Origin: Typhlomys cinereus
Taxonomy: Eukaryota > Chordata > Mammalia > Rodentia > Platacanthomyidae
Direction: 5' to 3'
Assembly (NCBI GenBank): GCA_023101885.1
Contig: JALPQD010000017.1
Span: 737,428-801,427 of the forward strand
DNA: 64,000 bases
Shown: positions 13,832 to 14,330 of the stretch, in pieces
Numbering within the stretch: position 1 is the stretch's first letter
How the letters are laid out: the number at the start of each line of letters is the position of its first letter
Translations under genes and position numbers: made by a program
The notes under the pieces: generated by a model
The model's database searches: none
Seen by the model: only the letters and a program-made list of their open reading frames with translations
Told to the model about the DNA's origin: nothing

Positions 13832-14330
13832 ATGGCAACAAGCAGCACCTTTGTTGTATCTCATTTATTTTTACCCCAAATTACAGAGGCTCGAAAGAAT
13901 TTACTGACTGCTTGGGTTTTTCTGACTAATTGGGGCAGTTCCATATTATGGCCATTAGGAGATTTAAATATAGCTCTTCTTGAGCAATACTCTTTATTAG
14001 ATCCCCTGTTATCCTTTAAATATCTTGGTGTGCGAGTGGATAAAATTAGAAAGAATTTGTTTGCTTTAAATTACCAACCTCTGCTTGATAAAACTATTAG
14101 CGATTTAGCTAATTGGACGGCTCTTCCATTATCATTAATTGGCAGAGTTAATACTATTAAAATGGTTGTTTTATCTAAATGTTTGTATTTATTTCAATGC
14201 TTTCCCATCAAGCTACCTAAAAATGCTCTAAAGCTTTGAATTCTGCAATTAGTTTTGTTTTATAGACTACAAGCAGAGTTAAGATTAATCTTAAAACCAC
14301 AACTCCTCTAGGGGGCCAAAGAATTAATTC
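13832..14330 (+). mobile_element. Divergent L1-clade reverse-transcriptase fragment, non-mammalian type, broken
   Basis: A 135-codon frame (13832-14239) contains, from about 14010, the region just after the RT catalytic core of L1-clade ORF2: FKYLGVRVDK, then LFALNYQPLLDKT, then LPLSLIGRVNTIKM, then LYLFQCFPIKLPK. The match continues in another frame after a shift near 14232 (LNSAISFVL, a TAG stop where family members usually have Trp, then SRVKINLKTTTPLGG). Mammalian L1 has IPCSWIGRxNIVKM and YRFNAIPIKIP here. The LPLSLxGR, YLFQ and RVK forms resemble fish and other vertebrate L1-clade elements (family knowledge from memory). The first 55 codons are not clearly homologous. One frameshift and one stop make it a dead fragment. 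The source family is unknown. Confidence 0.7.

What the first reader, a model, noticed from the sequence alone, without database searches (positions are those of the whole stretch)
13832..14330. A fish-like L1-clade reverse-transcriptase fragment in a rodent genome
Seen: a 135-codon frame with FKYLGV, LFALNYQPLLDKT, LPLSLIGRVNTIKM and LYLFQCFPIKLPK in the correct order for the region after the RT active site of an L1-clade ORF2, continuing after one frameshift as LNSAISFVL and SRVKINLKTTTPLGG. The rodent L1 at 41060-41195 in this same window has the mammalian forms of these motifs (NVIPIKIP, ISKFIWRHKRPRIAK), so this is not an ordinary L1 copy. The piece is AT-rich against GC-richer flanks. 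Known: the LPLSLxGR and YLFQ forms are typical of fish and other vertebrate L1-clade elements. Inference: it may be a very old pre-eutherian L1 lineage, a horizontally acquired element, or an exapted piece. Only one frameshift and one stop over the conserved region is surprising for an ancient neutral fossil.
Basis: partly seen in the sequence, partly recalled or inferred. Interest (0 to 1): 0.75.

Follow-up and report, generated by a model that had tools for sequence, protein, structure and literature searches.

The report
Ancient fish-type L1 fossil in rodent
A short broken piece of a very old jumping gene, closer in sequence to the L1 elements of living fishes than to ordinary rodent L1, sits at the same place in several related genomes and seems to have been kept as DNA, not as a protein.

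Summary
Window 13928-14253 (+) is an L1-clade ORF2 piece from just after the RT active site: a frameshift-aware alignment to a fish-like L1 profile scores 311 half-bits; tiles outside it and the window's own L1 reach at most 56. Among rows of 60 or more columns its best match is a fish-like L1 fragment (42/69), ahead of human L1 (30/69) and the window's L1 (26/68). A 69-column tree leaves its place open. Nineteen database proteins share parts of it; three run colinearly from unique flank into it, so the insertion is orthologous, not a recent arrival or contamination. In these three the element is better kept than the flank, strongly in two, weakly in one. The constraint does not look like protein constraint: relatives read it in different frames and replace L1-conserved residues about as readily as others. 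Best reading: a vertically inherited, very old, noncoding fragment of a non-mammalian-type L1, perhaps kept as a regulatory element. Such fossils are a described kind (Frith 2022). Relatives' species and DNA, copy number and gene context were not obtained.

The parts
13928..14236 (+). L1-clade ORF2 fragment, region after the RT active site, in one frame (NWGSSILWPLGDLN ... FKYLGV ... LPLSLIGRVNTIKM ... LYLFQCFPIKLPKNALK)
   Evidence: Frameshift-aware fish-like L1 profile, 311 half-bits; human L1 ORF2p E 2.8e-13; other tiles at most 56
14237..14320 (+). Continuation after the frame change (LNSAISFVL*TTSRVKINLKTTTPLGG); the strict alignment ends at 14253, the rest is matched by eye to the fish-like consensus
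   Evidence: 14254-14760 searched alone is within noise (43.8; 25 null windows 33.5-80.9)
13841..13927 (+). Conserved upstream part; L1 homology weak and spread over other frames, not in the open frame
   Evidence: 25/27, 25/27 and 19/28 translated residues identical in P0011, P0012, P0010; low-penalty alignment reaches 13851
14042..14160 (+). Most conserved core (DKIRKNLFALNYQPLLDKTISDLANWTALPLSLIGRVNTI)
   Evidence: 35-37 of 40 identical in six group-B relatives, 31 of 36 in P0009; core higher than the rest with P 0.0009-0.07 in four relatives tested
13541..13840 (+). Unique flank shared colinearly with relatives P0010-P0012: marks an orthologous insertion site
   Evidence: tblastn alignments spanning flank and element; 30/79, 33/96, 29/99 identical
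40864..41673 (-). Ordinary rodent L1 ORF2 piece in the same window, used as comparator
   Evidence: Profile score 581; RVT_1 6e-17 in 41338-41676

Best explanation
It is a fragment of the ORF2 gene of an L1-clade retrotransposon of a kind whose closest sampled relatives are fish-like L1 elements. It inserted in a distant ancestor of this rodent and of several other (unnamed) lineages, lost coding ability, and stayed at the same site. Parts of it have been kept better than the adjoining unique sequence, most likely because they were taken over as a cis-regulatory (enhancer-like) noncoding element. Shown: L1-clade homology, orthologous placement, frame breakage, a conservation step near the element boundary. 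Inferred: DNA-level selection, depth of the insertion, regulatory role.
For: Homology. Orthology: P0010-P0012 align from 13601, 13547 and 13541 through 13948, 13921 and 13921 in order. Conservation step: element against flank identity 25/27 v 33/96 (P0011, P 3e-8), 25/27 v 29/99 (P0012, P 2e-9), 19/28 v 30/79 (P0010, P 0.008). Not coding: group-B relatives read LLIGV where the window's open frame reads TNWG; the window's DNA there reads LIGA in its other frame, so the DNA seems kept while the frame moved; they also shift frame in different ways after SKV. P0010 reads KEFTDCL, as the window's third frame does, where P0011, P0012 and the window's open frame read KNLLTAW. The stop-containing stretch 14237-14296 is still recognisable in P0004, P0006, P0009. 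Replacements hit 2 of 18 L1-conserved columns against 6 of 32 others in group A (P 0.69), and 6 of 18 against 5 of 32 in group B (P 0.17). The best-kept fossil stretch (columns 8-33: three changed columns of 26) is the part that varies most in fish-like L1s (mean top-residue frequency 0.46, against 0.73, 0.81 and 0.68 elsewhere).
Against: No orthologue DNA was available, so constraint is read from translations; relatives were found through shared 5-residue words, which favours conserved stretches; the element/flank border and the core were chosen after looking; frameshifts lower flank identity in translated comparison. The age is not dated by named species. P0010's step is weak (P 0.008) and P0005's core excess is not significant (P 0.066). 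The tree does not separate the fossil from mammalian L1 (p-AU 0.468). No direct evidence of enhancer activity.
Confidence: 0.6

Rival explanations
1. Same ancient orthologous L1 fossil, but a neutral relic: it looks conserved because only well-preserved stretches are found by word-based search and because the relatives may be close kin.
For: Search needs shared exact words (tool description); group A rows differ little and may be near relatives; replacements are spread without regard to L1-conserved columns.
Against: P0010-P0012 cross the boundary in one alignment each and differ on its two sides; the core is better kept than the rest in three of four group-B rows tested.
Confidence: 0.25
2. 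An old but ordinary mammalian L1 copy (L1M-like) that kept ancestral motifs.
For: Tree with 69 columns cannot reject fossil plus mammalian L1 as one clade (p-AU 0.468); human L1 does match at E 2.8e-13.
Against: 30/69 and 26/68 identity to human and window L1, against 42/69 for the best fish-like row of 60 or more columns (the fish-like rows were gathered with the fossil's own profile, a bias); the forms CSW[IV]GR and FN.IPIK seen in both mammalian rows are absent.
Confidence: 0.08
3. Exapted protein-coding exon or small protein.
For: Open frame of 151 codons in the window; 80-residue open frames in P0014-P0016.
Against: Frame differs among relatives, with shifts in group B, and L1-conserved residues are replaced; no Pfam match.
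Confidence: 0.04
4. Recent horizontal transfer into this rodent, or contamination of the assembly with fish DNA.
For: Fish-type motifs and AT-rich composition.
Against: Shared flank with relatives; P0014 cluster of 37 sequences on 36 contigs; fish-like rows of 60 or more columns only 39-61% identical; frame already broken.
Confidence: 0.03

Closest known systems
Pre-amniote and pre-tetrapod L1 protein fossils of the human genome (Frith 2022, PMC9004415; abstract, section 9 part 1 of 2 and section 10 read, passages elsewhere)
   Same: Frame-broken L1 protein fragments at orthologous sites, conserved and thought exapted; 5 L1 in table 4 (aligned to proteins with the suffixes LCh and DR, coelacanth and zebrafish as I recall the codes) and 137 L1 in table 5; ancient TE fossils are said to lie often in gene deserts or large introns.
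   Different: Age here is not dated by named species; it could be one of those loci or not, since no human coordinates could be obtained.
X9_LINE (L1) and MARE6 (Tx1) of Repbase, listed for human by Kojima 2018 (PMC5753468, passages seen)
   Same: Ancient L1/Tx1-clade relics in mammals.
Mobile-element-derived conserved non-exonic elements (Lowe and Haussler 2012, PMC3428314, abstract and outline seen)
   Same: Mechanism: retroelement fragments kept as regulatory DNA.
   Different: Constraint here is inferred from translations, not from base-level alignments.
Mammalian L1 ORF2p (PDB 8sxt; window copy at 40864-41673)
   Same: Homologous over the same 69 residues.
   Different: 43% and 38% identity; mammalian motif forms missing.

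Membership tests
L1-clade non-LTR retrotransposon (ORF2 fragment) | Significant homology to L1 ORF2 over the post-active-site region | tested here: met
L1-clade non-LTR retrotransposon (ORF2 fragment) | RT active-site motif (YADD) | tested here: inconclusive
   The profile holds the YADD columns, but the alignment begins after them (13928 strict, 13851 permissive); a truncated fragment need not have it
L1-clade non-LTR retrotransposon (ORF2 fragment) | Endonuclease, ORF1, 3' end and target-site duplications | not tested
   The profile covers only the RT end
Mammalian (L1M/L1P-type) L1 | Mammalian motif forms and closest identity to mammalian L1 | tested here: not met
   against one human and one window copy; the AU test leaves the clade open
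Ancient exapted TE protein fossil (Frith type) | Orthologous insertion shared by other lineages with flank homology | tested here: met
   species unnamed, so the distance is inferred
Ancient exapted TE protein fossil (Frith type) | Presence in reptiles or fishes at the orthologous site | not testable with these tools
   No vertebrate genome collection; the genome search did not complete
Conserved non-exonic regulatory element | Base-level constraint above neutral and no coding | tested here: inconclusive
   on translations only

The most novel reading that the evidence does not exclude
The insertion predates the mammal/reptile split or older and belongs to an L1 lineage that no living mammal carries in active form; its core (about 14042-14160, with TAATTGG sites at 13927, 14110 and 14136 in and near it) works as a developmental enhancer, so the locus is a dated witness that non-mammalian-type L1 was present in mammal ancestors, against the proposal that L1 entered therians by horizontal transfer.
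Probability: 0.25. Interest if true: 0.55.

Novelty: new member of a known kind. Interest (0 to 1): 0.35.

Why it matters
If dated, each such fossil tells which L1 lineages lived in mammal ancestors, which bears on whether L1 was inherited vertically or came into therians horizontally (Ivancevic 2018, PMC6036668, passages seen, proposes the latter; Frith 2022, PMC9004415, section 10, argues that L1-like elements were present in jawed-vertebrate ancestors). It is also a compact candidate for a retroelement-derived regulatory element that can be tested in mouse.

Tried and rejected
Recent horizontal transfer and contamination: rejected because flank and element are shared. Coding exaptation: rejected because frames and L1-conserved residues are not kept. 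Gene context: Rfam gave one marginal tRNA match, and 18 read-through translations (both strands, all frames of 1-14999, 15000-29998 and 45000-59998; 30000-44999 and 60000-64000 not scanned) gave 0 of 18 with any Pfam family at E 0.01. Full-length relatives through a long query: 213 candidates, none scored at E 10. Viral contigs and prokaryote genomes: no relative. Tree: 7 of the 16 core-covering relatives were aligned; of 45 rows 37 were kept, the 8 with fewer than 60 of 69 columns dropped (P0008, P0009, P0039, P0043, P0046, P0049, P0054, P0055); model LG+G4 without mixture; the tool warned of few columns and of long branches meeting. The fish-like profile used 25 of the 35 rows P0021-P0055; only three of those 35 carry an organism name, so 'fish-like' is inferred for the rest. 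Second copy in the window: no significant one by blastn (best other match 16 bases, E 0.026). An upstream or downstream extension of the element scored alone: noise.

Full report
What is there. By sequence the piece matches human L1 ORF2p residues 766-834 (8sxt, E 2.8e-13). A frameshift-aware alignment to a profile of 25 fish-like L1 fragments covers 13928-14253 at 311 half-bits with one frameshift; 12 random windows gave 31-56. A scan of both strands in 128 tiles (median 37) returned only this piece and the window's own L1 on the minus strand above 56. Upstream of 13928 the open frame is not the ORF2 frame: a permissive alignment extends to 13851 only with further shifts at 13893 and 13924, and that part alone scores within noise; the downstream extension past 14253 also scores within noise when taken alone. 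The stop after SFVL sits where the fish-like consensus has W (by eye, against the consensus).

What it is related to. One protein search with the single frame gave 12 hits; a profile search gave 51, scoring only the 7998 candidates that share most words. Together they fall into: group A, 89-98% identical (P0007, P0014-P0018); group B, 69-79% (P0001-P0006, P0008, P0009, P0019, P0020); P0010-P0012, found in the first search only, which cover the upstream edge; and 35 rows (P0021-P0055) of fish-like L1 ORF2, three of them named, all three teleosts by my knowledge of the names. Over 69 columns the fossil is 42/69 identical to the best fish-like row of 60 or more columns (P0021; three shorter rows of 33-35 columns are at 63-70%), 30/69 to human L1 and 26/68 to the window's L1. 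The fish-like rows were gathered with the fossil's profile, which favours them. A maximum-likelihood tree of 37 rows unites the fossils (100/99) and the two mammalian L1s (100/98) but leaves their relation open; holding fossils and mammalian L1 together costs 0.61 log units, p-AU 0.468. So 'not an ordinary mammalian L1' is supported by identity and motif form, not by phylogeny.

Orthology and age. P0010, P0011 and P0012 align to the window colinearly from 13601, 13547 and 13541 through 13948, 13921 and 13921, that is from unique flank into the element. The three are 47-74% identical to one another and their flank is 29-38% identical to the window's in translation. I read this as an orthologous insertion. 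The depth (between mammalian orders or more) is my inference from those identities; the database names no species for them. The host as a rodent rests on the L1 copy and on nine matches (up to 3 mismatches) to a recalled B2-type SINE motif; the B1 (two), ID and B4 motifs that I recalled gave none.

How it is kept. In P0011 and P0012 the first 27 codon-lengths of the element are 25/27 identical, against 33/96 and 29/99 in the flank (P 3e-8 and 2e-9); in P0010 19/28 against 30/79 (P 0.008). In group B the stretch 14042-14160 is 35-37 of 40 identical in six rows (P0001, P0003-P0006, P0008) and 31/36 in P0009; of four rows tested the core exceeds the rest in three (P 0.0009-0.003) and not in P0005 (P 0.066). 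The pattern is not that of a working RT or of a protein. Relatives seem to read the same DNA in other frames: LIGV where the window's open frame has TNWG and its other frame LIGA; KEFTDCL (P0010, and the window's third frame) where the others have KNLLTAW. Group B rows shift frame in different ways after SKV. Replacements fall on L1-conserved columns about as often as on others (2 of 18 v 6 of 32 columns in A, P 0.69; 6 of 18 v 5 of 32 in B, P 0.17) and the best-kept stretch is the one most variable among fish-like L1s. I read this as DNA-level preservation, most likely regulatory. Limits: no orthologue DNA, search bias towards conserved words, border and core chosen after the fact.

Literature. 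Frith 2022 (PMC9004415; [quoted passage not shown] Kojima 2018 (PMC5753468; passages) lists X9_LINE under L1 and MARE6 under Tx1. Ivancevic 2018 (PMC6036668; passages) proposes that L1 entered therians horizontally. Lowe and Haussler 2012 (PMC3428314; abstract and outline) describe mobile-element-derived conserved elements. The present locus is a new, or perhaps already catalogued, member of that kind. The five paper searches that were answered were for the kind, not for this locus, and supplementary lists could not be read, so I cannot say whether it is in print.

Not obtained. The genome of the window could not be searched, so copy number is unknown beyond the window, where no significant second copy was found. 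No gene was found: 0 of 18 read-through translations had a Pfam family at E 0.01 (30000-44999 and 60000-64000 not covered), and Rfam gave one marginal tRNA match.

Noticed in passing
P0007 (protein from an ENA contig), residues 1-27: Nearly identical to the fossil from NYQPLL on, but with an unrelated leader of about 27 residues: a deletion, a chimeric contig or a spliced transcript using part of the fossil.
   Followed up: no
   Followed up: partly
P0004, P0006, P0009 C-terminal tails: Relatives keep more 3' sequence whose shifted reading might be the next L1 motif (GL.LPNF..YYW); the window does not align there past 14296. By eye, no DNA.
   Followed up: partly
1-29998 and 45000-59998, both strands: No Pfam domain at E 0.01 in any of 18 read-through translations: perhaps a gene desert or large intron.
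   Followed up: partly
61853-61921: tRNA-family match just above the gathering score (29.5 against 29, E 0.044), perhaps a SINE or tRNA relic.
   Followed up: no
11611-12460, 29092-29819, 49953-50625, 53901-54346: Long open frames made largely of simple repeats.
   Followed up: no
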